From Cuniculiplasma divulgatum (lineage in GTDB: Archaea > Thermoplasmatota > Thermoplasmata > Thermoplasmatales > Thermoplasmataceae), in assembly GCA_031200235.1 (NCBI GenBank), contig CP133595.1, positions 124,001 through 188,000 on the forward strand: 64,000 nt of DNA, in the 5' to 3' direction. Shown here piece after piece: positions 23,168 through 59,449 of the stretch. Made by a program: the position numbers and the translations under genes. Every line of letters begins with the position of its first letter. Within the stretch, counting starts at the first letter, position 1. Under the pieces are notes generated by a model. The model was not told the origin of the DNA. It did no database searches and worked only from the letters and a program-made list of their open reading frames with translations.

Positions 23168-23698
23168 TCATTGCTGTGTGCGTTCAATGCTTTCCAGCCT
23201 TCTCTTCATGTCACGTTCGCAGTTCGGGCAGCAGACATAGTAAGTTTTCCGGTTGCTTTTCACGGAAATTGGCGTTCCCCTGATCTCTGCATCACAGTAA
23301 TCGCAGTGCAGGGATGGGTACCTGGGCACAGGGCTTCCATTTTTCCTGTGGGATACAATCTGTACATCAATTATCCCTGGATCCTTCACAGAAGCTATTT
23401 TTTCCAGATAAACCAGTACCAGTGATGTTCCGTCAATCAGATCGAATTCTTCCAGTACCAGATCATGGGGAATCACGGTTCCGCTTCTCACGTGGATCAG
23501 GGCGAGATCATTCTGGTCACTGCTTGATTCCACAGTGAACCTGGTGATCTCCCGGGATTCCACCATGCCATCGATGATCTTCCGGGCGGTGATCCTGCTG
23601 ATTCCCAGTTCCGCTGCAATATCAACAACGCTCTTCCTGGAATCCTCCTTCAGCATCATGAGCACCCGCTGTTCAAGTTCCCTGGATTGCTTTTGCAT
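23168..23698 (-). CDS. Copper-responsive regulator with winged helix and TRASH domain
   Basis: The 176-residue protein has an Lrp-like helix-turn-helix at residues 1-55 (DIAAELGISRITARKI) and a middle sensor-like region. A C-terminal TRASH domain follows (CDYC, then YYVCCPNCERDM). TRASH domains bind metals and occur in archaeal CopT/CopY-type copper regulators. It lies between the YHS protein and the copper ATPase and is divergent from the latter across about 100 bp, the expected operator. It very likely controls both genes; copper as the signal is inferred from context. Confidence 0.85.
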   Translation of the reverse strand: MQKQSRELEQRVLMMLKEDSRKSVVDIAAELGISRITARKIIDGMVESREITRFTVESSSDQNDLALIHVRSGTVIPHDLVLEEFDLIDGTSLVLVYLEKIASVKDPGIIDVQIVSHRKNGSPVPRYPSLHCDYCDAEIRGTPISVKSNRKTYYVCCPNCERDMKRRLESIERTQQ

Positions 23699-23799: not shown

Positions 23800-25860
23800 G
23801 TGCCCACTGATCCTGTTTGCGGCATGTTTGTGCCGGACAATTCGACCCTGAAGATGGAAAAAAATGGCAAGACCTATTACTTCTGTTCCAGAGATTGCAT
23901 GGAAAAATTCATGTCTCCGGAAGACCAGGTAAAGAGGTTGAAAGTGCGCCTTATTGTGGCATGGCTTTTCTCTCTTCCAGTCCTCCTGCTGACATATTTA
24001 ACGCATTTTCCAGCAAAGGACTACGTGCTTCTTGCTCTTGCCCTTCCGGTGCAGTTTTATGCAGGGCTTGGTTTTTACAGTGGAGCCTACCAGGCCTTAA
24101 AGAACAGGATGGGGAATATGGACATACTGATATCCCTGGGAACACTCACTGCATTCTTCTTCTCCTTATTCATAACATTTTTCAGGAATGCCATTCCCGG
24201 ATCAGGCGTATATTTCGATGCTTCGTCGTTCATAATCACGCTTATTCTCACGGGAAGCTTCATCGAATCAGTAACAAAGAGGTCTGCAGGTGATGCTGCA
24301 TCCAGACTGCTGGAGATAATGCCTAAAACAGCACATCTTGTCACGTATAGCGGTGTGAAGAACATACCTGCCGATCAGGTGAAGGCCGGGGACAGAATAA
24401 GCATCCGCGCTGGAGAAGTCATTCTTGCCGACGGCACCGTGGATGATGGAACGGGCGATGTTGACCCATCCGCCATAACGGGAGAGCAGGAGCCGTTAAC
24501 TGTAAAGCCTGGCGACCATGTAATATCCGGCATGAAAAACATGAACGGTGCCATTACAGTTCTTGTTGAAAAGGCAGGGCAGGATTCCACCATATCCAGA
24601 ATCTATGAAATGCTTCAGGCAGCGTCCTCAGGCCGTGCCAAGATACAGAGAGTTGCGGACATTTTCTCTACGTACTTTGTTCCGGTTGTACTGATTTCTG
24701 CTGCAATCTCTGCCATCACATGGGCGATGATACTGCGTGGCACAGGCCTGGACATTTCCATTCCTGTCCTTGCCTTTGTTTCGGTTGTCGTAATCGCATG
24801 CCCATGTGCCATTGGGCTTGCTGCACCAATAGTCATGCTCATAACTTCGTCAACGGCATCATCAAAAGGTATACTGTTCAAGAATACCAGTGTCCTTGAC
24901 AGGCTGGCCAGAACAACCATGGTGGTATTTGATAAGACAGGGACTGTCACAGAATCTGTGCCCTCAATTGCAAGGATTGAGACCAATATGGAAATGGACG
25001 AGTTTCTCTCATATGCATACGCAATTGAATCCCATTCAAACCATCCTGTAGCAAGAGCCATAGCAAGATACTGCAGGGAACATGGCACATTGGAATCCGC
25101 AGCGTCGGATGTTTCTGAGAAACCTGGAACCGGGATTCAGGGAAGTGTTGGAGGTCACACGATCATCATGGAAAGGTCCAGAGAGACCACAGGATCCGCC
25201 GTCTCAATGTCAGTTGATGGTGTGTCTGCTGGCACCATTTTCATGGAATATAAAATTCGCCCTGAAATGCCTGGTGTTGTGGCGAAACTCCATGAAATGG
25301 GAATGAAGGTTGCCATGGTATCAGGAGACAGAAGGGATGCTGTTGAATCGGTTGCAGGAAGCACAGGCATTGATATCTACGAGGGCGAATGCACCCCGGA
25401 GGAGAAGGCTGCCATCATACAGGGCTACCAGGAAAAAGGGGAGTTTGTGGCATTTGTGGGCGATGGCATAAATGATGCTGTTGTCATGGAAACTTCCGAT
25501 GCCGGCATTGCAGTGTCAAATGCCTCAGACATAGCCATGGACGCAGGCGACCTGATTCTCGCCAGGGATGATCTAACCCTTGTCGCGGAAGCAATGGTCA
25601 TGGCAAGGCTCTCCATGAGGAAGATCAGGCAGAATATTGGGTGGGCCATAGGATATAATACCATTCTCATTCCCGTTGCCGCCGGAATACTTGTGCCCGC
25701 CTTCGGACTCGGCATCTATTCCTTCCTGCCAATGCTCTCTGCGCTTGCAATGGGGCTCAGCTCAACAAGTGTGGTTCTGAATTCCCTCATGCTGAAGCGG
25801 TCCTTCAGGATCACTTCCCTTGGCAGTTCAGTAAGATCAGTTGTGGCTTCCAAAGCGTGA
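23800..25860 (+). CDS. copA: Copper-exporting P1B-type ATPase
   Basis: The 686-residue P-type ATPase has the metal-translocating CPC motif (residues 334-336), the phosphorylated Asp378 in DKTGT, HP in SNHPVARA, GDGINDA, and a late GLSST helix typical of Cu(I) pumps. Instead of the usual CxxC heavy-metal domain, it starts with a YHS domain (Cys7, Cys29, Cys33) like the small protein at 22919. It would export Cu(I) from the cytoplasm. The start is GTG 23800. The divergent TRASH regulator is the probable controller. Confidence 0.95.
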   Translation: MPTDPVCGMFVPDNSTLKMEKNGKTYYFCSRDCMEKFMSPEDQVKRLKVRLIVAWLFSLPVLLLTYLTHFPAKDYVLLALALPVQFYAGLGFYSGAYQALKNRMGNMDILISLGTLTAFFFSLFITFFRNAIPGSGVYFDASSFIITLILTGSFIESVTKRSAGDAASRLLEIMPKTAHLVTYSGVKNIPADQVKAGDRISIRAGEVILADGTVDDGTGDVDPSAITGEQEPLTVKPGDHVISGMKNMNGAITVLVEKAGQDSTISRIYEMLQAASSGRAKIQRVADIFSTYFVPVVLISAAISAITWAMILRGTGLDISIPVLAFVSVVVIACPCAIGLAAPIVMLITSSTASSKGILFKNTSVLDRLARTTMVVFDKTGTVTESVPSIARIETNMEMDEFLSYAYAIESHSNHPVARAIARYCREHGTLESAASDVSEKPGTGIQGSVGGHTIIMERSRETTGSAVSMSVDGVSAGTIFMEYKIRPEMPGVVAKLHEMGMKVAMVSGDRRDAVESVAGSTGIDIYEGECTPEEKAAIIQGYQEKGEFVAFVGDGINDAVVMETSDAGIAVSNASDIAMDAGDLILARDDLTLVAEAMVMARLSMRKIRQNIGWAIGYNTILIPVAAGILVPAFGLGIYSFLPMLSALAMGLSSTSVVLNSLMLKRSFRITSLGSSVRSVVASKA

Positions 25861-25869
25861 TGGGGACTC

Positions 25870-27375
25870 CTAATCTTCCGGATCCTTTACTGCTGACCTG
25901 ACACCTTTACGTGAAGTAAGAACGCCTCCCTGAACAAAAGCCAGATGATTCAGTGCCTGATGGGTGGCATACCACATGACAGGGAGCATCACGAGCCATG
26001 CAACGATTGAAAATTCAGTCTGGCCCGAAAGGGTGAATGACGGCCATATTGCTTTCTGCAGTCTGTCTGTTATGTAAAAAATTGTCAGGGGAAGCAGGCT
26101 GAATATAACTGTTATGTATTCGTTGAACACATACCTGTCATTTCTATCCAGCATTGAATATGCGGTACCCAGAAGTACTCCACCGGCGAATCCTGAAATG
26201 GTCATTACACCGAAAATTGAGGGTGAATGGTAAGCTGCCTCCGTCATGAACGGCAGGAACCAGACAACAGGGATAAATGTTCCAAGAAATGCCATTCCAG
26301 AACTGATCCATCTGGAAGATTTGCCGTAAGGGATTATGCGGAAAAGCTCAACCATGAATACATAGCCAACAAGTACCATCAACATATTGGAAAGGAAGAA
26401 AAATAACGCGTATCTCTGCCAGGAATAGTAGATACCGATTGTGAAAACCACTGGCACGGAAACCAGTATGAAGGCGACAAATACAATCTTCAATGTTTTC
26501 ACGCCTTTCCACATGTCCGGCATGAAAAAAGCTACGTAATGTTTCCTCCTGTAGAGCCTTGAGACAAGTAAATACGTGCCAGCCAGGAGGGCAGCACTTA
26601 CAAAGATCATGGGAACAAGAATTTCATCGATCAGGAGTATGCTCACAGCCGGAAGGAGAGCAATAAAACTCTCGCACTGGCAGCTGAGTGCCCCTGTCAA
26701 CCCGTATACAGCAACCCCCAGTCTGTTGGAGAACGACTTATGACCGGTCAGGTATGTTATTATCTCGTGATAATTCTCCGAAACCAGTGCCGCTATTCCA
26801 AAGAAGAGAACAAGTTCCACCGGGCTGAGTATCATGTTGATCTTTGTTGAAAGAACAGTTATGCCAAACTTTTCAAGAAGCGGAACCTTGAGGCCGATGA
26901 ATACGAACATGGCAGCTGTACTCTCAATTGTTACAGGAAATCCAGGAGGCTGATTTGCCGGTCCCACAATACTCCCTATTATGGCCATAAGAGCCAGCGT
27001 GATGAAAAAAGTAGGAACCCTGACCTTAAGGTCTCCTGTGTCCCTGATGGAAAGTACATAGTAAATCAGAAATAGCCCCAAGGAGGATACAAGCATGAAG
27101 AACTGTGGAAAAGCTGCAAACGCAACAGTAAGGAATAAAAGGAAGGTAAGTGTGAAGGAAGCCAGGTAAAGCTGAAGTGGGTGCCAGTATTTCATGAAGA
27201 CAGGCTGCAGAGCATAGAAAAGTACCATTATTGTGACGATTATTGCCATAGAACTAACTGCAGCAGTATCAATAACAAGGTCACCCAGTTCATAGGCCAT
27301 AAGTATTGAGATAAAAAATAGGATAAAGCTCAGGGAGAATGCCAGTGCCTCCAGCGTTTTTGTCTGATTCAACAT
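25870..27375 (-). CDS. Large polytopic membrane protein of the bc-type respiratory cluster
   Basis: The 501-residue protein has about 14 hydrophobic helices and few charges. A CQCES sequence in the middle (LTGALSCQCESFIAL) is the only notable cysteine pair; there is no His pattern for haem. It sits 36 bp downstream of the cytochrome b gene on the same strand, so it is probably part of the same transcript. It could be an extra subunit or an assembly factor of the cytochrome b-Rieske complex. No known family was recognised. Confidence 0.7.
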   Translation of the reverse strand: MLNQTKTLEALAFSLSFILFFISILMAYELGDLVIDTAAVSSMAIIVTIMVLFYALQPVFMKYWHPLQLYLASFTLTFLLFLTVAFAAFPQFFMLVSSLGLFLIYYVLSIRDTGDLKVRVPTFFITLALMAIIGSIVGPANQPPGFPVTIESTAAMFVFIGLKVPLLEKFGITVLSTKINMILSPVELVLFFGIAALVSENYHEIITYLTGHKSFSNRLGVAVYGLTGALSCQCESFIALLPAVSILLIDEILVPMIFVSAALLAGTYLLVSRLYRRKHYVAFFMPDMWKGVKTLKIVFVAFILVSVPVVFTIGIYYSWQRYALFFFLSNMLMVLVGYVFMVELFRIIPYGKSSRWISSGMAFLGTFIPVVWFLPFMTEAAYHSPSIFGVMTISGFAGGVLLGTAYSMLDRNDRYVFNEYITVIFSLLPLTIFYITDRLQKAIWPSFTLSGQTEFSIVAWLVMLPVMWYATHQALNHLAFVQGGVLTSRKGVRSAVKDPED

Positions 27376-27411: not shown

Positions 27412-29028
27412 TCATTCATTGTAAATGGTAGCCCTGTACATTCTCAGTACTGCACCGCCAATCAGCAATATGACACCCAGCCCAATTGCGTACAGCGAAG
27501 TTTTGAACACGGTGTCAGGGTTGATCACTGAAATTTCGAAGAGTATGAATATTGCTGATGCTGTGAATCCAGAACCCGCCAGTGTATAGGCATTCTTGCT
27601 CATGGGCTTGTAAACATCGGCACGCTGAGTAAATATGCCCCTTGAAATGGCGATCACCACTACGGCTGAGATTGCTGTTACCATCAGTGTGAGTATCATT
27701 GAGATGGTGTACAGTAATGATGGCGCCCTGATGTCTGCAAGTATGAGCATACCAGATCCAAATGCGGAAACTGCCATTATGGCCATTGTTGCAAATGCCC
27801 ACGGAGCATTCCTTACATGAATCTTCTCTTTTTTCATTGCATCTGCTATAACCCAGGTGAGTGAGATTATTGCAATGCCTGGCAGGAAGAAGAACAGCGC
27901 AACCTTCCAGTTTGCTATTGCAATACCGGGAGTAAGTGCTCCCCAGAGTGAAAGACTGGCGAGGTAAATCGTGCCAAGAATCGCAAAGGATACTGTTATG
28001 GGCCTGTCCCTCATTTTAAGTGAACTGCTTTTATCCACATATGGTAGAATCAGGAGATAAACCAGGGGCATTCCTGCAAATATCACTGTGGCCCAGAATG
28101 GTGTTAAGGACTGCGCAAACTGGAAGTCAAGCTCCTTGTAAACAAACAGCAGGAACCATGGTGGATATGCCGGGACACTTGCTGCAAGGGGGCTGGTTGG
28201 AGATACCTGGGGGAATGGCGAGAACAGTGGTGGAACGCCGGGAAGCAATGCCAGAATGGATGGAACTATTATTATAATCCCGAATGTCAGAAGCATCAGT
28301 TGAATCATATACACAAGATTGTAAGGATACCATGGTTTGTAGCTTCCATCATCATGATCAATTGCCGGAGCCTTATAGCCCGATTCTTCCCTCTTTGGCA
28401 TGATGGTGTTGTATTCTGCCATGAAGAAATGCACAGCAAACAGAAGACCAATAACAGCCACGAGAATTATGTGCCAGGCGAGCATTCGTGAAAACAGAGA
28501 AAGTTGAGTACCGTTTCCGAAAAAGATTCCAAGAATCCAGTTACCAATCACCGGAAATCCTCCTGCTATACCTCGACCAACATCTGTGGCATCTGCCGAA
28601 AGCACATCTCCGCTCATTGAATAGCCGAAGAACCCAGCACCAAGTGTTGTCACCAGAAGGAGAACGCCTGTCAGCCACTGGCTTTCACGTGGATGCTTGT
28701 AGGCGCCTTCATAAAGATTCCTCAGAAGGTGTATATAGACCAGAACCACCATGGCATAAGCGCCATAAAGATGGGTTGTCAAGATGAACGAACCAAATGG
28801 CGTGCTGGAAAGAAAAGCCTCTGTGCTTGCATAAGCGTTTGACGGCTCATAGTAAAGCAGCAGAATGAGACCGGTGATAACTTCATAGAGAAACGCAAAC
28901 ATAACCATTGCGCCGGTCCAGAACCAGCCGCCACCCTTGGATCTCATGTAATCTGGAACCTTACGTGGTATGGGCTGGGGTTCGTTCATTATTTTCTCAA
29001 TCATATTTTCCTTTTTTTCATTCGGCAT
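27412..29028 (-). CDS. Cytochrome b of a bc-type complex (extended archaeal form)
   Basis: The 538-residue protein has the two haem-ligand His pairs of cytochrome b with the family spacing: His86/His100 (THLYGAYAMVVLVYIH) and His186/His200 (AWHIILVAVIGLLFAVH). The first four helices resemble other cytochromes b. The C-terminal half is long, with about eight further helices, as in archaeal SoxN/SoxC-like proteins. It would pass electrons from quinol to the Rieske centre encoded just upstream. Ten bp separate the two genes. Confidence 0.9.
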   Translation of the reverse strand: MPNEKKENMIEKIMNEPQPIPRKVPDYMRSKGGGWFWTGAMVMFAFLYEVITGLILLLYYEPSNAYASTEAFLSSTPFGSFILTTHLYGAYAMVVLVYIHLLRNLYEGAYKHPRESQWLTGVLLLVTTLGAGFFGYSMSGDVLSADATDVGRGIAGGFPVIGNWILGIFFGNGTQLSLFSRMLAWHIILVAVIGLLFAVHFFMAEYNTIMPKREESGYKAPAIDHDDGSYKPWYPYNLVYMIQLMLLTFGIIIIVPSILALLPGVPPLFSPFPQVSPTSPLAASVPAYPPWFLLFVYKELDFQFAQSLTPFWATVIFAGMPLVYLLILPYVDKSSSLKMRDRPITVSFAILGTIYLASLSLWGALTPGIAIANWKVALFFFLPGIAIISLTWVIADAMKKEKIHVRNAPWAFATMAIMAVSAFGSGMLILADIRAPSLLYTISMILTLMVTAISAVVVIAISRGIFTQRADVYKPMSKNAYTLAGSGFTASAIFILFEISVINPDTVFKTSLYAIGLGVILLIGGAVLRMYRATIYNE

Positions 29029-29037
29029 AAATGCACC

Positions 29038-29760
29038 TCAGCTTGTAGGGGTGAGAGTTGTTATTTCTGTGTACGTTGAGGATGGAAGCTGGCTCCCTCC
29101 GCTCAAATCACTGGAATGTCCGTATATGGTTGGACCCACGAGGCTCGTAACACTGTACTGATCTTTTGAAGAATCATAAGCCAGAACAGTGTTGGGCAGC
29201 GGATGAGTGGTGGGACCGGTTACCACTGCGAATCCCTTGTATGGATCATATGTGCTGCCATGGCAGTTGCAGTGAATCTTGCCAGGATATGAAGGCGATG
29301 AGGGCGGATAGAAATGTATTATTGGCGGGATGCATCCAAGGTGCTGGCAAATTGCACTGGAGGCCACCACCGACTTGTATGGCCCCACTCCTCCTGCTGA
29401 TGTGAAAGTTTTGCCGGTTGCGAGAATTTTCACTGTTGTTGGTTCTATGGCCTGGTCATTGTTGCTGCTGTCTCCAAGCCTGAGAAGAAAATTAGGCTCG
29501 TTCTGCAGTGGATAGTCAAAGAGTACAATGGTTGAATTGTTAACCTTGAGATCGCTGGTGCCGATTGGCTTCCCGCTCTGAGAGTAAAGTAACAGGGTGG
29601 GAAAGGAGCTGAATGCCGCCGTAATTGGCGGGCTCACATTCTCCAGCACGCCACGCAGTGCCCCTATGCCGCCGGCGGCAATTGCCGCCACTCCAAGGAA
29701 CTTGAAGAAATTTCTTCTGTCCTTGTCAACTGGCTCATCTGCATCGTTCTTTCCATTCAT
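29038..29760 (-). CDS. Rieske iron-sulfur protein
   Basis: The 240-residue protein has the two Rieske boxes, CQHLGC (Cys138, His140, Cys143) and CNCHGS (Cys164, Cys166, His167), which hold a 2Fe-2S cluster and a disulfide. The N-terminus has DRRNFFKF followed by a hydrophobic stretch, a Tat-type signal anchor. It lies between cytochrome b (10 bp) and sulfocyanin (17 bp), making the electron path quinol, Rieske, sulfocyanin very likely. Confidence 0.92.
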   Translation of the reverse strand: MNGKNDADEPVDKDRRNFFKFLGVAAIAAGGIGALRGVLENVSPPITAAFSSFPTLLLYSQSGKPIGTSDLKVNNSTIVLFDYPLQNEPNFLLRLGDSSNNDQAIEPTTVKILATGKTFTSAGGVGPYKSVVASSAICQHLGCIPPIIHFYPPSSPSYPGKIHCNCHGSTYDPYKGFAVVTGPTTHPLPNTVLAYDSSKDQYSVTSLVGPTIYGHSSDLSGGSQLPSSTYTEITTLTPTS

Positions 29761-29777
29761 TGCATTTCACCGGATAA

Positions 29778-30560
29778 TTACGATACAGTGATGGTCCCCA
29801 TCATCCATCCGGCTGTTGCCATTGCACCATCCCATCCAGAAGGACCGGTACCACATGGTGCGTAACACTGCCAGTTAAGGGTTGTTCCACTGGTCTGGTT
29901 GAGATAGAATGATGCATGGGTAACAGTTCCGCCACTTGGGTTAGTTCCAGCCCAAGATGGAATATTAACTGCAACACTTGAACCGCTAAGAATGGTGAAT
30001 GTGTGAGTTACCATGTACCCACCAGATGCACCGCCAATCCAAGGAAGGGACTTAACGGCCCATCCAGTACCTTTGTTTATTGAAATCCCATTTGTAACAT
30101 TGCTGGTAAAAGTCGCATTCTCAGCTGCTGCCGTGCCGTTGTAAATGTATTCCACTCCTCCTACCGTTCCAATGACTTTTGCAAAGTAAGAATTATTCTG
30201 GACACCAGTGGAGGTTGCATTTCCAAGTCCCGGTGCAGGACCACTGTCGTAATCAATTATGGTCAGCGAAATCAACTGGTGACCCGGAAGCGTTATGCTT
30301 GCAGATGACCCCAGGGTCCCGTTGGGTTCCAGCACAAAGAAAGCAGGCTGCCCGCCATGGTGCCCAATATATGAGTTGTTTCCATGTATTGTATCATTAT
30401 ACCAGTTATTTGGGGTAATCACAAGGGTGAGCGAACTTGATGGCGGGGTGCTAACAGCGTGGACACTTGAAACGCTGTCATAATACGCAGCGCCAATGCC
30501 TATACCTGCAACCACTACTATTACAGCAATTATCGTATAGAATGTCTTTTCAGCAGACAT
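29778..30560 (-). CDS. Sulfocyanin-type blue copper protein
   Basis: The 260-residue protein has an N-terminal membrane anchor (residues 7-27) and a cupredoxin fold. The C-terminal sulfocyanin signature is present (NWQCYAPCGTG, later a GWMMG block), giving the copper Cys and Met ligands; His ligands lie in THASF and upstream. Sulfocyanins carry electrons outside the membrane to a haem-copper oxidase or from iron oxidation in acidophiles. It is the first gene of the Rieske-cytochrome b unit. No oxidase subunit is in the window. Confidence 0.88.
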   Translation of the reverse strand: MSAEKTFYTIIAVIVVVAGIGIGAAYYDSVSSVHAVSTPPSSSLTLVITPNNWYNDTIHGNNSYIGHHGGQPAFFVLEPNGTLGSSASITLPGHQLISLTIIDYDSGPAPGLGNATSTGVQNNSYFAKVIGTVGGVEYIYNGTAAAENATFTSNVTNGISINKGTGWAVKSLPWIGGASGGYMVTHTFTILSGSSVAVNIPSWAGTNPSGGTVTHASFYLNQTSGTTLNWQCYAPCGTGPSGWDGAMATAGWMMGTITVS

Positions 30561-30617: not shown

Positions 30618-32606
30618 TTAACGCTGACTTGTTTCGACGCTGTTTGCTGAATTGATTATTGACCAGACTTCTGCTTCAGTTATTTTTCCCTGGGAAGAAA
30701 ATGTATGAACAGGTGGAATGCTGAGATTGTAATTTGCATCCAATGCTGACCAGTTGACCTGAAACACTACTGCCCAGCTGGAGGGTGAGGTGAAGTTGAA
30801 GTAGACTGGCTGGAACGGCTTGGAAAAGAACTTGAGAAAACTCGCGTTATCCATGGTCACAGGCCGTATGTATGGATCAGTAAGACCATCGTAGCCCCAC
30901 ACGCCATTTTTGAACATATAATTATCAATCAATATGTACCCAACCGAAGTGTAGTTGTAGCTTGAATAATATGCGTTCCCCATGAGTTCATGCAGCACCG
31001 ATATGTTCACACCGGTGGAATTCCATAAATAGTAAATGCTTTCAAAGCTGCTGGAAATATTATATCCGTTAAGCAGCAGACCAAGGATATGATCGGTTGC
31101 AACTGAATAATTCCTGCTTGCATTATGATCAAGCCAGACAGCAGCATTATGATCCGGGATGTTAATAGACTGGTTACCTGACGGAGTAACAACCTTCTGG
31201 ACCTGGTACGGAGTAGCGGCAGAGGATGCAAGAACCACCACAAGAAGCCCGATTACAGCAAATGACTTCACGTTGTTTATTCTCATGGCCTTAAGCTGTA
31301 TGCTTGCACGCTTCAACAATCTCAACAGGTAACCCTTCAGGCTGGCTTCGCGTGCTTCAAGTATCCGGATAGTCTGCACGAATCCTCTCTTCTTCCTGAA
31401 TCTGAAATCAGTAACAAGGGAAGATCTTGCATGCTGAAGAATGCCGTATATCCCAATAGCCTCAAGTATGGATAAAGGTTCGAAAAGGTATTCAAAATAT
31501 CTTCCAGGATACAGGATCATGTTCCAGGTAACAAGAGAATATATGAAAGATATGAACATCAGTATGAGCCAACCTGTGGTAACGTACTTGGCCCTTCCAG
31601 AAACCATGTTGAGACCCATGATGGCAATGCCGCCGTCCATCATCAGAGGCAAAATTGTTATTACATCCCTAACAGAGAATGTTGGAAGGATCACATAGAG
31701 TAGAGGTACTGAAATACCAATGGCTGCAAAATAGATGAGAAGTGAAGCATATATGAGTGGTTGGTACATCCTATGACGGGATGCCTCAATCCTCTCAATG
31801 AAAGGCTTCAAAAGATTGGTTGGTGAGAATATCACAATGGTTATGATCAAGAAAAATCCGGCAATGATGAAACTGGCGGGCAGATGGAGTATGCCGCCGC
31901 TCAGGAAACCGCTGAAGTTGGGAAAGAACACATACCAGTATGCGAAAATGAAAGCCGAAAACGGATAGAGGAAAGCTGCGTAACGGAGACGATTTCTCAG
32001 CCTTGGGTCCAGGAAAAGGCCAATCATTGTAATTCCAACCACTGCCATAACGTACATGTAAGTGGATAGTGGATGTGACATCACAAGCAGGAAAGACGAA
32101 ACAAGCACTGCAGGGTAATATCTCCGGTCATCCATATAGTAAAGGAAGAATAGAACGGTAAGAAGCCCGAAAAAGTGGCCAAATACCAGGATGGATGAAA
32201 TTGATGTCTGGAACACTATGATTGGGTTAAAGGCATCGAAAAGTGCAGCAAGGAGAGAGATTGTTGGGTTTTTTGTAATCTTATATGCGATGAAGAATAT
32301 GATTATAGAAGCCAGGCCGCCAAATATTGGGGGAATCTTGACCAAAAGGAGAGTATAGCTTATTCCGGTAAGTTTCCAAAGTGCAATTATTATCCAGTAC
32401 ATTACAGGGAAATCACCATACCCTGCACCTCCCCAGGGGGAAGGGAAAGTGTCCATGATTTTCCCACTCTTCACGAACTCCTGGAGTATTGTATAATAAA
32501 TTCCAAAGTCGTTTCCAATGGCGAAAGCCCTTAATGAGGGGAGTATTCTTATGAAAATCGCTGCAAGTCCGATCATAGATACTGCAGCGACGGTCTTTCT
32601 ATCCAT
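30618..32606 (-). CDS. GT-C-like membrane glycosyltransferase
   Basis: The 662-residue protein has about 12 helices in its first two thirds. An early loop has an acidic GNDFGIYY motif, and a later one has GYGDFPVMYW. A C-terminal extracellular domain follows (from about residue 450, with sequons). This is the plan of GT-C enzymes that move sugars from lipid carriers, such as STT3/AglB or GT39/83 relatives, but the hallmark WWDYG motif is not seen. The substrate is unknown. It lies downstream of the divergent dehydrogenase gene and upstream of the sulfocyanin gene, 57 bp away. Confidence 0.65.
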   Translation of the reverse strand: MDRKTVAAVSMIGLAAIFIRILPSLRAFAIGNDFGIYYTILQEFVKSGKIMDTFPSPWGGAGYGDFPVMYWIIIALWKLTGISYTLLLVKIPPIFGGLASIIIFFIAYKITKNPTISLLAALFDAFNPIIVFQTSISSILVFGHFFGLLTVLFFLYYMDDRRYYPAVLVSSFLLVMSHPLSTYMYVMAVVGITMIGLFLDPRLRNRLRYAAFLYPFSAFIFAYWYVFFPNFSGFLSGGILHLPASFIIAGFFLIITIVIFSPTNLLKPFIERIEASRHRMYQPLIYASLLIYFAAIGISVPLLYVILPTFSVRDVITILPLMMDGGIAIMGLNMVSGRAKYVTTGWLILMFISFIYSLVTWNMILYPGRYFEYLFEPLSILEAIGIYGILQHARSSLVTDFRFRKKRGFVQTIRILEAREASLKGYLLRLLKRASIQLKAMRINNVKSFAVIGLLVVVLASSAATPYQVQKVVTPSGNQSINIPDHNAAVWLDHNASRNYSVATDHILGLLLNGYNISSSFESIYYLWNSTGVNISVLHELMGNAYYSSYNYTSVGYILIDNYMFKNGVWGYDGLTDPYIRPVTMDNASFLKFFSKPFQPVYFNFTSPSSWAVVFQVNWSALDANYNLSIPPVHTFSSQGKITEAEVWSIINSANSVETSQR

Positions 32607-59042: not shown

Positions 59043-59347
59043 TAATAATGGTCGATCACTGAAAAAATTGTATGACTAAATAAAATTCTACGATCCAGTT
59101 AGGATTTGATTAATATTTTAAGTGAATACGATTTTTATCCTTCACAAATACTCCCTTATCAGATAATGATAGGGCAACAAAGTGAGTGCTGTTCCAGGCT
59201 ATATAAGTAAGCTCGAAGACATAAGAACATCCACCTTTATTCAGCTTTCAAACGAACGCATTAAGAATAGCTTCAATGACAGAAAGATGCATGAGAGTGG
59301 TAAGATAACCATTGTGGAAGCAATATAGCATTGAACTTTTTGGGGTA
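59043..59347. other. Intergenic region between the island and tRNA-Met
   Basis: No gene is recognised in about 300 AT-rich bases. No partial copy of the tRNA-Met 3' end, which would mark an attachment site, was seen here. Confidence 0.5.
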
Positions 59348-59440
59348 TGCCGGGATCGGGGTTCGAACCCGAGACCTCCGGATTTCTCAGAACATTCCAT
59401 TCTTATGAGTCCGGCGCTCCTCCAGCTAAGCCACCCCGGC
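59348..59440 (-). tRNA. tRNA-Met (CAT) with an intron
   Basis: It is read on the minus strand over 93 nt. The acceptor stem is GCCGGGG/TCCCGGC (last pair G-T) with discriminator A; the T-arm is TCGGG-TTCGAAC-CCCGA. The anticodon stem CCGGA/TCCGG holds CTCATA-A, giving CAT, interrupted after position 37 by about 20 nt. This is the usual archaeal intron site cut by the splicing endonuclease. Without the intron the tRNA is 73 nt, an elongator-type Met tRNA. Confidence 0.88.
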
Positions 59441-59449
59441 ATAAAAAAA

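What the first reader, a model, noticed from the sequence alone, without database searches (positions are those of the whole stretch)
25870..27375. Unknown 14-helix protein downstream of the cytochrome b-Rieske-sulfocyanin genes
Seen: a 501-residue, almost entirely hydrophobic protein with a CQCE motif, in line with the bc-type genes. Known: archaeal bc-like complexes often contain extra lineage-specific subunits. Inference: a new subunit or assembly factor of the Thermoplasmatales complex.
Basis: partly seen in the sequence, partly recalled or inferred. Interest (0 to 1): 0.5.

Follow-up and report, generated by a model that had tools for sequence, protein, structure and literature searches.

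The report
Likely archaeal copper-loading membrane protein
An undescribed 14-helix membrane protein in acid-loving archaea travels with copper-containing respiratory proteins, and is better explained as a helper that loads copper into them than as a part of the cytochrome bc-like complex.

Summary
The ORF is real: 501 aa, minus strand, last gene of a run cupredoxin–Rieske–cytochrome b–this gene. Its family is in 89 of 117 genomes of the order and hardly elsewhere in the phylum. It has 14 helices and no Pfam, NCBIfam or convincing PDB match. N201, C232-Q-C-E235 and G399 are invariant in 98 of 98 rows; no His is conserved, so it is no cytochrome. Homologues form a cupredoxin/bc clade and oxidase-linked clades (COX2–COX1–cupredoxin–CtaB–[gene]). 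It follows 14 of 22 cytochrome b operons that have a cupredoxin and 0 of 41 that lack one. Five Thermoplasma-type genomes without COX1 keep it beside the cupredoxin. Its C-half is a distant DUF1404 homologue. It co-occurs with a Met-rich, NapH/CcoG-like membrane ferredoxin (both in 82 of the 90 genomes with either). Best explanation: a Cu(I) delivery factor for respiratory copper sites, one paralogue for the cupredoxin of the bc-like complex, another for the oxidase. Function is inferred, not shown. 'bc subunit' is weakened; 'assembly factor' is supported.

The parts
25870..27375 (-). 501-aa, 14-TM protein of the finding (called Q here); N-half TM1-8 with CQCE, C-half TM9-14 DUF1404-like
26671..26682 (-). 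codons of the invariant C232-Q233-C234-E235 motif, middle of TM7
   Evidence: 98 of 98 rows; position computed from residue numbers
26773..26775 (-). codon of invariant N201 (TM6)
   Evidence: 98 of 98 rows; position computed from residue numbers
27412..29028 (-). cytochrome b (SoxC-like) of the bc-like complex
   Evidence: PF13631 1.8e-45; NF041076 4.5e-129, below its curated cut-off
29038..29760 (-). Rieske 2Fe-2S protein (SoxL2-like) with a weak Tat-signal match
   Evidence: PF00355 2.1e-5; TIGR03171 3.7e-64, below cut-off
30618..32606 (-). 662-aa polytopic membrane protein, next upstream; seen only in the own genus, so probably not part of the module
   Evidence: found in 4 of 100 loci; no Pfam or NCBIfam hit
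23800..25860 (+). copper-type P1B ATPase with YHS domain, convergent neighbour (mostly own-genus arrangement)
   Evidence: TIGR01511 1.8e-143; ATPase within 5 kb of Q in 6 of 100 loci
23168..23698 (-). HTH regulator with archaeal TRASH metal-sensing domain
   Evidence: PF08394 1e-16

Best explanation
Q is a polytopic biogenesis factor that handles copper in the membrane and loads it into the copper sites of the archaeal respiratory chain. Shown by computation: family, invariant intramembrane N/CxC/E residues, DUF1404-like C-half, paralogues split by copper client, co-occurrence with a Met-rich NapH/CcoG-like membrane ferredoxin (C4FER). Inferred: C4FER reduces Cu(II) and passes Cu(I) along its Met/Glu-lined helices; Q receives Cu(I) on C232/C234 in TM7 (with N201, E200 and perhaps M391 and Y434 as further ligands or gate residues) and releases it on the outer face to the apo-protein. 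The bc-clade paralogue serves the cupredoxin made from the same operon (29778-30560); the oxidase-clade paralogue (own genome C1:241230-242591) serves CuA/CuB and the oxidase's cupredoxin. Direction of transport and the exact client site are not determined.
For: Neighbourhood: 71 of 100 homologue loci lie within 5 kb of COX1, COX2 or a cupredoxin; directly upstream on the same strand are CtaB in 34, cyt b in 19, cupredoxin in 9. Client specificity: Q follows 14 of 22 cupredoxin-bearing Rieske-cyt b operons and 0 of 41 without cupredoxin (one locus re-assigned; Fisher 9e-9, phylogeny not corrected). Natural loss of the oxidase: 5 of 5 g16 genomes (Thermoplasma) lack COX1 yet keep Q directly after the cupredoxin. 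Tree: a cupredoxin/bc clade of 30 rows (SH-aLRT 100) apart from oxidase clades; 12 label changes against 55.1 in shuffles. Presence over 117 genomes: Q and COX1 both in 79, Q only 10, COX1 only 1, neither 27; Q and C4FER both in 82, Q only 7, C4FER only 1, neither 27. Chemistry: C232, Q233, C234, E235, N201, G399 invariant in 98 of 98, no conserved His (best column 17 of 98), M391 in 91 of 98; a review (PMC7558416, passages) describes Cu(I) sites of P1B ATPases as two Cys plus Tyr, and Asn plus Met and Ser. Partner: in 28 C4FER rows 9 of 57 invariant columns are Met (p 0.001 against background, the start Met counted) with invariant Glu in MxxEM-like motifs and NapH-type clusters. Split version: in family f18 C4FER, a CC-motif protein and DUF1404 are neighbouring genes beside COX1/COX2, cupredoxin or Rieske-cyt b; in two f7 genomes the CC-motif protein is next to COX1 with a cupredoxin domain. 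DUF1404 against Q C-half: P 4.3e-7, first of 75 families.
Against: No copper binding or phenotype is shown. 24 of 100 loci have neither a copper respiratory gene nor C4FER within 5 kb, mainly a 15-row clade beside FAA hydrolase and a HerA-like ATPase, though 14 of the 15 carrying genomes have COX1 elsewhere (not G054, 72% complete). 8 of 22 cupredoxin-bearing cyt b operons lack Q downstream; the three I inspected carry a longer cupredoxin frame. 7 of 89 Q genomes show no C4FER (6 under 90% complete, G078 is 94%). N-half similarity to the CC-motif protein is only suggestive (P 0.02 with 7 rows, rank 2 of 75; 0.0055 with 9 rows, ahead of the 74 backgrounds). Link to bacterial CtaG is not supported. 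Distances between N201, C232/C234, M391 and Y434 in the model could not be measured. In one Thermoplasma genome (G098) both Q and C4FER appear broken.
Confidence: 0.58

Rival explanations
1. Q is a lineage-specific structural or accessory subunit of the bc-like complex, comparable with the uncharacterised hydrophobic CbsB of the Sulfolobales cbsAB-soxLN cluster; the oxidase paralogue would be a subunit of the oxidase.
For: Directly after cytochrome b in 19 of 100 loci, short intergenic gaps, conserved in two families of the order. CbsB is described as an uncharacterised hydrophobic protein of an analogous cluster (PMC5461723, passages).
Against: 0 of 41 cupredoxin-less cyt b operons have it; in Thermoplasma it sits with cupredoxin and C4FER instead of cyt b; paralogues go with a different complex; no heme ligand is conserved.
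Confidence: 0.2
2. Q is an intramembrane thiol-disulfide carrier (CxC redox pair) that keeps the cysteine pairs of CuA/CxxxC cupredoxin sites reduced before metallation, working like CcdA/DsbD, with electrons from the C4FER ferredoxin.
For: Invariant CxC in mid-TM7; vicinal CC in the split relative; CxxxC in all 25 neighbouring CUP and all 34 COX2 rows; C4FER is an electron-transfer-type protein.
Against: CxC rather than CxxC; oxidase-linked CUP2/CUP3 are single-Cys type-1 sites; C4FER's invariant membrane residues are Met/Glu beside two Cys pairs, not a plain dithiol relay.
Confidence: 0.12
3. Q acts in heme handling (heme O/A transfer or insertion) rather than copper, given its place after CtaB.
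For: CtaB directly upstream in 34 of 100 loci.
Against: No conserved His; Q follows the cupredoxin alone in 9 loci and is kept in Thermoplasma without COX1.
Confidence: 0.05
4. Q is an unrelated transporter (for example an exporter) that is merely co-inherited with respiratory genes.
For: 24 of 100 loci without respiratory copper gene or C4FER within 5 kb; 14-TM shape.
Against: No transporter family or fold match; repeated association with three kinds of copper operon and clustering on the tree.
Confidence: 0.05

Closest known systems
DUF1404 (PF07185), family of unknown function
   Same: Q's C-half aligns with DUF1404 proteins of family f18 at P 4.3e-7; in the own genome the only two PF07185 hits at E<=1 are Q and its paralogue.
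   Different: Below the Pfam gathering score (17.2 against 29.4 bits); the His of DUF1404's FSHYALF and WHxP stretches have no conserved His in Q; DUF1404 is a separate gene of about 200 aa.
Caa3_CtaG (PF09678) and C. glutamicum CtiP
   Same: Polytopic copper-site assembly factors encoded with oxidase genes; CtiP is a 16-TM protein with an uncharacterised N-part and a CtaG C-part whose loss destabilises the bc1-aa3 supercomplex (PMC9145763, passages).
   Different: No PF09678 match in the own genome or in eight f18 genomes at E<=10; CtaG has conserved His and Asp (PMC9145763), Q has no such His.
CcoG/NapH-type membrane ferredoxins (for the partner C4FER)
   Same: NapH-like C-terminal region (NF007013 8.1e-11); CcoG is a cupric reductase needed for cbb3 oxidase assembly (PMC7558416, passages).
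   Different: C4FER has an additional large Met-rich membrane domain, absent from the CcoG description I read; it scores below NapH's curated cut-off. That CcoG and NapH are related kinds is recalled.
Cu(I) P1B-type ATPases (CopA)
   Same: Intramembrane paired Cys plus Asn, Met and Tyr as possible Cu(I) ligands.
   Different: No ATPase domains, no sequence relation.
CbsB of Sulfolobales
   Same: Uncharacterised hydrophobic protein of a bc-like gene cluster (PMC5461723, passages).
   Different: Sequence could not be compared here; no Sulfolobales genome was reachable.

Membership tests
DUF1404 (PF07185) | score over the curated gathering cut-off | tested here: not met
   17.2 bits against 29.4; 3 of 98 members match at E<=0.1, best 4.5e-5
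DUF1404 (PF07185) | detectable common descent by profile comparison | tested here: met
   P 4.3e-7 for the C-half; rank 1 of 75 families, next 0.055
Caa3_CtaG (PF09678) | PF09678 match | tested here: not met
   no hit at E<=10 in the own genome
Caa3_CtaG (PF09678) | conserved His and Asp as candidate metal ligands | tested here: not met
   best His column 17 of 98; Asp columns at most 61 of 98
Caa3_CtaG-like function | needed for copper-site assembly | not testable with these tools
   needs deletion and metal analysis
Subunit of the archaeal bc-like complex | encoded with cytochrome b wherever the complex is | tested here: not met
   0 of 41 cupredoxin-less cyt b operons have it directly downstream
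Subunit of the archaeal bc-like complex | present in the purified complex | not testable with these tools
   no proteomics
Known transporter families | match to a curated transporter model | tested here: not met
   no Pfam or NCBIfam transporter model for the window protein; among 98 members only scattered weak hits, such as MerE in 1 and PRK13747 in 2
Known transporter folds | fold match to a solved transporter | tested here: inconclusive
   Foldseek best E 0.034 with TM 0.15; VIA best Z 6.9, rmsd 4.7, 196 aligned; N-half best E 1.4, Z 5.0
P1B copper ATPase | P-type ATPase domains | tested here: not met
b-type cytochrome | conserved axial His ligands in membrane helices | tested here: not met
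   no His column above 17 of 98

The most novel reading that the evidence does not exclude
Thermoplasmatales carry a two-protein copper-loading machine not described before: C4FER, a membrane ferredoxin with a methionine/glutamate ladder that reduces and conducts copper, and Q, a 14-TM insertase with an invariant intramembrane N...CQCE site, duplicated so that one copy serves the cupredoxin of the bc-like complex and another the heme-copper oxidase; Q arose by fusion of two proteins (CC-motif protein and DUF1404) that are still separate genes next to oxidases in other Thermoplasmata.
Probability: 0.33. Interest if true: 0.75.

Novelty: new variant of a known kind. Interest (0 to 1): 0.58.

Why it matters
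How archaea put copper into cupredoxins and heme-copper oxidases is poorly known; a 2020 review names only CopZ of Archaeoglobus for archaeal Cu(II) reduction (PMC7558416, passages). If right, this gives a function to DUF1404, to a 14-TM family with no recognised fold and to a Met-rich ferredoxin family in nearly every COX1-bearing genome of the order, and names the residues (C232, C234, N201, E235) and clients to test. It also warns against counting every gene of a respiratory operon as a subunit.

Tried and rejected
Family look-up of the window protein: Pfam gave only COX14 at E 0.48 and NCBIfam nothing; PDB sequences gave nothing; plasmid records gave nothing. Full-length and N-half fold searches gave only loose helical matches (otopetrin, MFS, ABC, GPCR, designed repeats), read as no evidence.

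CtaG relation: a weak DUF1404 ring in B. subtilis at E<=1 suggested DUF1404 resembles CtaG; it did not ring at E<=0.01, and PF09678 found neither Q nor DUF1404 proteins. Dropped. Internal duplication of the two halves: N-half against C-half P 0.32. Dropped. CbsB: no Sulfolobales sequence could be reached; the one genome-contig scan returned only Thermoplasmata and Euryarchaeota-titled loci. Literature: DUF1404 in 0 papers; searches for archaeal copper-insertion factors and Thermoplasmatales clusters listed no paper that I saw describing Q (listings and abstract starts only, plus passages of four papers); a published Acidiplasma/Ferroplasma sulfocyanin cluster figure legend lists named genes plus unnamed hypotheticals (PMC12524180, passages). 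These searches cover open-licence PMC only.

Full report
WHAT IS THERE. The finding's ORF is at 25870..27375 on the minus strand, 501 aa from an ATG. Upstream on the same strand follow cytochrome b (27412-29028, SoxC-like), Rieske (29038-29760, SoxL2-like) and a cupredoxin-like gene (29778-30560), with gaps of 36, 9 and 17 bp. Downstream and convergent lie a copper P1B ATPase (23800-25860, +) and, beyond it, a TRASH-domain regulator (23168-23698, -). The gene is under purifying selection: against its nearest relative 117 synonymous and 40 non-synonymous codon differences. AF2 with 98 rows gives a confident model (pLDDT 87.8, pTM 0.84) with 14 membrane helices by my count, a small domain between TM5 and TM6 (residues 134-184), and CQCE in the middle of the helix 218-245. 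K+R count 19 inside and 6 outside for an N-in, C-in topology. I call the protein Q.

FAMILY. A single-protein search found homologues in 87 of 117 genomes of the order, a profile in 89 of 117. In 389 genomes sampled across the phylum, 37 of 38 hits were in two families of the order and one was a weak stray. I fetched 100 of the 107 matches (the other seven, several of them fragments, were left out) and aligned 98 (two truncated rows dropped). N201, C232, Q233, C234, E235 and G399 are identical in all 98; P165, I205, P242, S260, L263, W372, P375, M391, E419, Y434, L464, P465 and W468 in 90% or more. No His column exceeds 17 of 98. Neither Pfam nor NCBIfam names the family, and PDB gives no sequence match and no convincing fold match for the whole protein or for the N-half alone. 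An invariant CxC and Asn in a family down to 16% identity to the window protein points to a chemical function.

COMPANY IT KEEPS. Directly upstream on the same strand: CtaB (heme O synthase) in 34 of 100 loci, cytochrome b in 19, a cupredoxin in 9, none of these in 38; 71 of 100 lie within 5 kb of COX1, COX2 or a cupredoxin. The oxidase arrangement is COX2-COX1-cupredoxin-CtaB-Q. In the tree a cupredoxin/bc clade of 30 rows, with the window protein, has SH-aLRT 100; labels need 12 changes against 55.1 when shuffled (quick method, several long branches). The own genome's second copy (C1:241230-242591, 26% identical) falls with oxidase-type rows; the own COX2-COX1-cupredoxin-CtaB locus is intact but has no Q after CtaB (L275), so this copy appears to have moved; it now follows a NosD-like beta-helix gene.

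COPPER RATHER THAN CYTOCHROME b. A scan for cytochrome b returned 79 loci. After dropping 16 with contig ends too near, and re-assigning one (L231) whose cupredoxin frame overlaps the Rieske gene, Q follows cyt b in 14 of 22 operons that begin with a cupredoxin and in 0 of 41 that do not (Fisher 9e-9, relatedness not corrected). The three Q-less cupredoxin operons that I inspected (L214, L221, L231) have a longer cupredoxin frame. Over 117 genomes: Q and COX1 together 79, Q only 10, COX1 only 1, neither 27. So Q tracks copper proteins, not cyt b and not only the oxidase. The window's cupredoxin itself is unusual: one His, CxxxC and two Met conserved in 25 of 25 rows, no second His; two of 14 rows hit Cupredoxin_1 and two COX2 in Pfam, six CoxB and three sulfocyanin in NCBIfam, none strongly.

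THE PARTNER. C4FER (640-740 aa) is within 5 kb of Q in 36 of 100 loci and co-occurs with it: both 82, Q only 7, C4FER only 1, neither 27 of 117. Its C-terminal part is NapH-like with 4Fe-4S motifs. Across 28 rows (26-58% identical to the first) 9 of 57 invariant columns are Met (one is the start), against a 4.6% background (p 0.001), together with Glu in NExxM, MxxEM and MGxEM motifs. A stand-alone copy of its N-terminal domain (about 300 aa) lies next to a full-length gene in many genomes, the own one included (C1:859285-860115 beside 860189-862144). CcoG, which I recall as a related kind of membrane ferredoxin, is a cupric reductase for cbb3 oxidase assembly (PMC7558416 and PMC13344008, passages). 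I infer that C4FER reduces and conducts copper.

TWO MODULES. PF07185 (DUF1404) gives in the whole own genome only two hits at E<=1: Q (residues about 320-471) and its paralogue. Over 389 genomes at E<=0.01 it gives 15 hits: one true member (G407), six that are Q, eight others. Around G407, 7 of 8 genomes of its family carry a 270-aa protein with GGASCCISLP or close to it; DUF1404 was found in six of the eight fetched loci, close to C4FER, COX1/COX2, cupredoxin, Rieske-cyt b or a TatC-like gene (TatC recognised by eye). DUF1404 against Q's C-half: P 4.3e-7; controls 0.77 for the other Q half and 0.09 to 0.3 for four respiratory families; rank 1 of 75 families, next 0.055. The CC-motif protein against Q's N-half: P 0.02 and rank 2 of 75 with seven rows, 0.0055 and ahead of all 74 background families with nine rows, the CC aligned with CQC; suggestive only. 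The two added rows come from two f7 genomes where the CC-motif protein lies next to COX1 carrying a cupredoxin domain. So Q is probably a fusion of two proteins that elsewhere are separate but keep the same company.

MECHANISM. Shown: sequence, topology model, invariants, linkage, co-occurrence, C-half homology. Inferred: Cu(II) is reduced by C4FER, Cu(I) passes to the C232/C234 thiolates of Q (N201, E200/E235, M391, Y434 as candidate ligands or gate), and is released on the outer face to apo-cupredoxin or to the oxidase. P1B ATPases use a similar set of intramembrane ligands (PMC7558416, passages). The nearest functional parallel is C. glutamicum CtiP, a 16-TM fusion ending in a CtaG domain, whose loss destabilises the bc1-aa3 supercomplex (PMC9145763, passages); Q is not a CtaG by any test here.

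AGAINST. 24 of 100 loci have neither a copper gene nor C4FER nearby, chiefly a 15-row clade in g4 and g6. No residue has been tested. G098 has frame-broken Q and C4FER, either decay or sequence error. Searches outside the phylum were not possible except in plasmids and the one cytochrome b scan.

VERDICT.

Noticed in passing
L042:8458-10407 and relatives; own genome C1:860189-862144: C4FER, a NapH/CcoG-like membrane ferredoxin with an extra membrane domain full of invariant Met and Glu (MxxEM motifs), in 83 of 117 genomes of the order: candidate archaeal cupric reductase / Cu(I) conduit.
   Followed up: partly
own genome C1:859285-860115 (L274:6283-7179): Stand-alone copy of C4FER's Met-rich N-terminal domain next to, and opposite, a full-length C4FER; same pairing in many genomes.
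   Followed up: no
29778-30560: The 'sulfocyanin' has a CuA-like CxxxC with one His and two Met and no second His in 25 of 25 relatives: an unusual copper site.
   Followed up: partly
L045:5045-8263 (G098): Q and C4FER are both frame-broken in this Thermoplasma-type genome: decay or sequencing error.
   Followed up: no
L282:8223-13193, L283:8014-12792: COX1 with an N-terminal cupredoxin domain fused to it, followed by a CC-motif protein, in two genomes of another family of the class.
   Followed up: partly
L275:3061-4768 (own genome C1:289060-290767): Own oxidase operon lacks the Q gene that normally follows CtaB; the oxidase-type Q is about 46 kb away beside a NosD-like gene.
   Followed up: partly
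59347-59441: ARAGORN reports a tRNA with a four-base anticodon call (cata), probably an intron-bearing tRNA.
   Followed up: no
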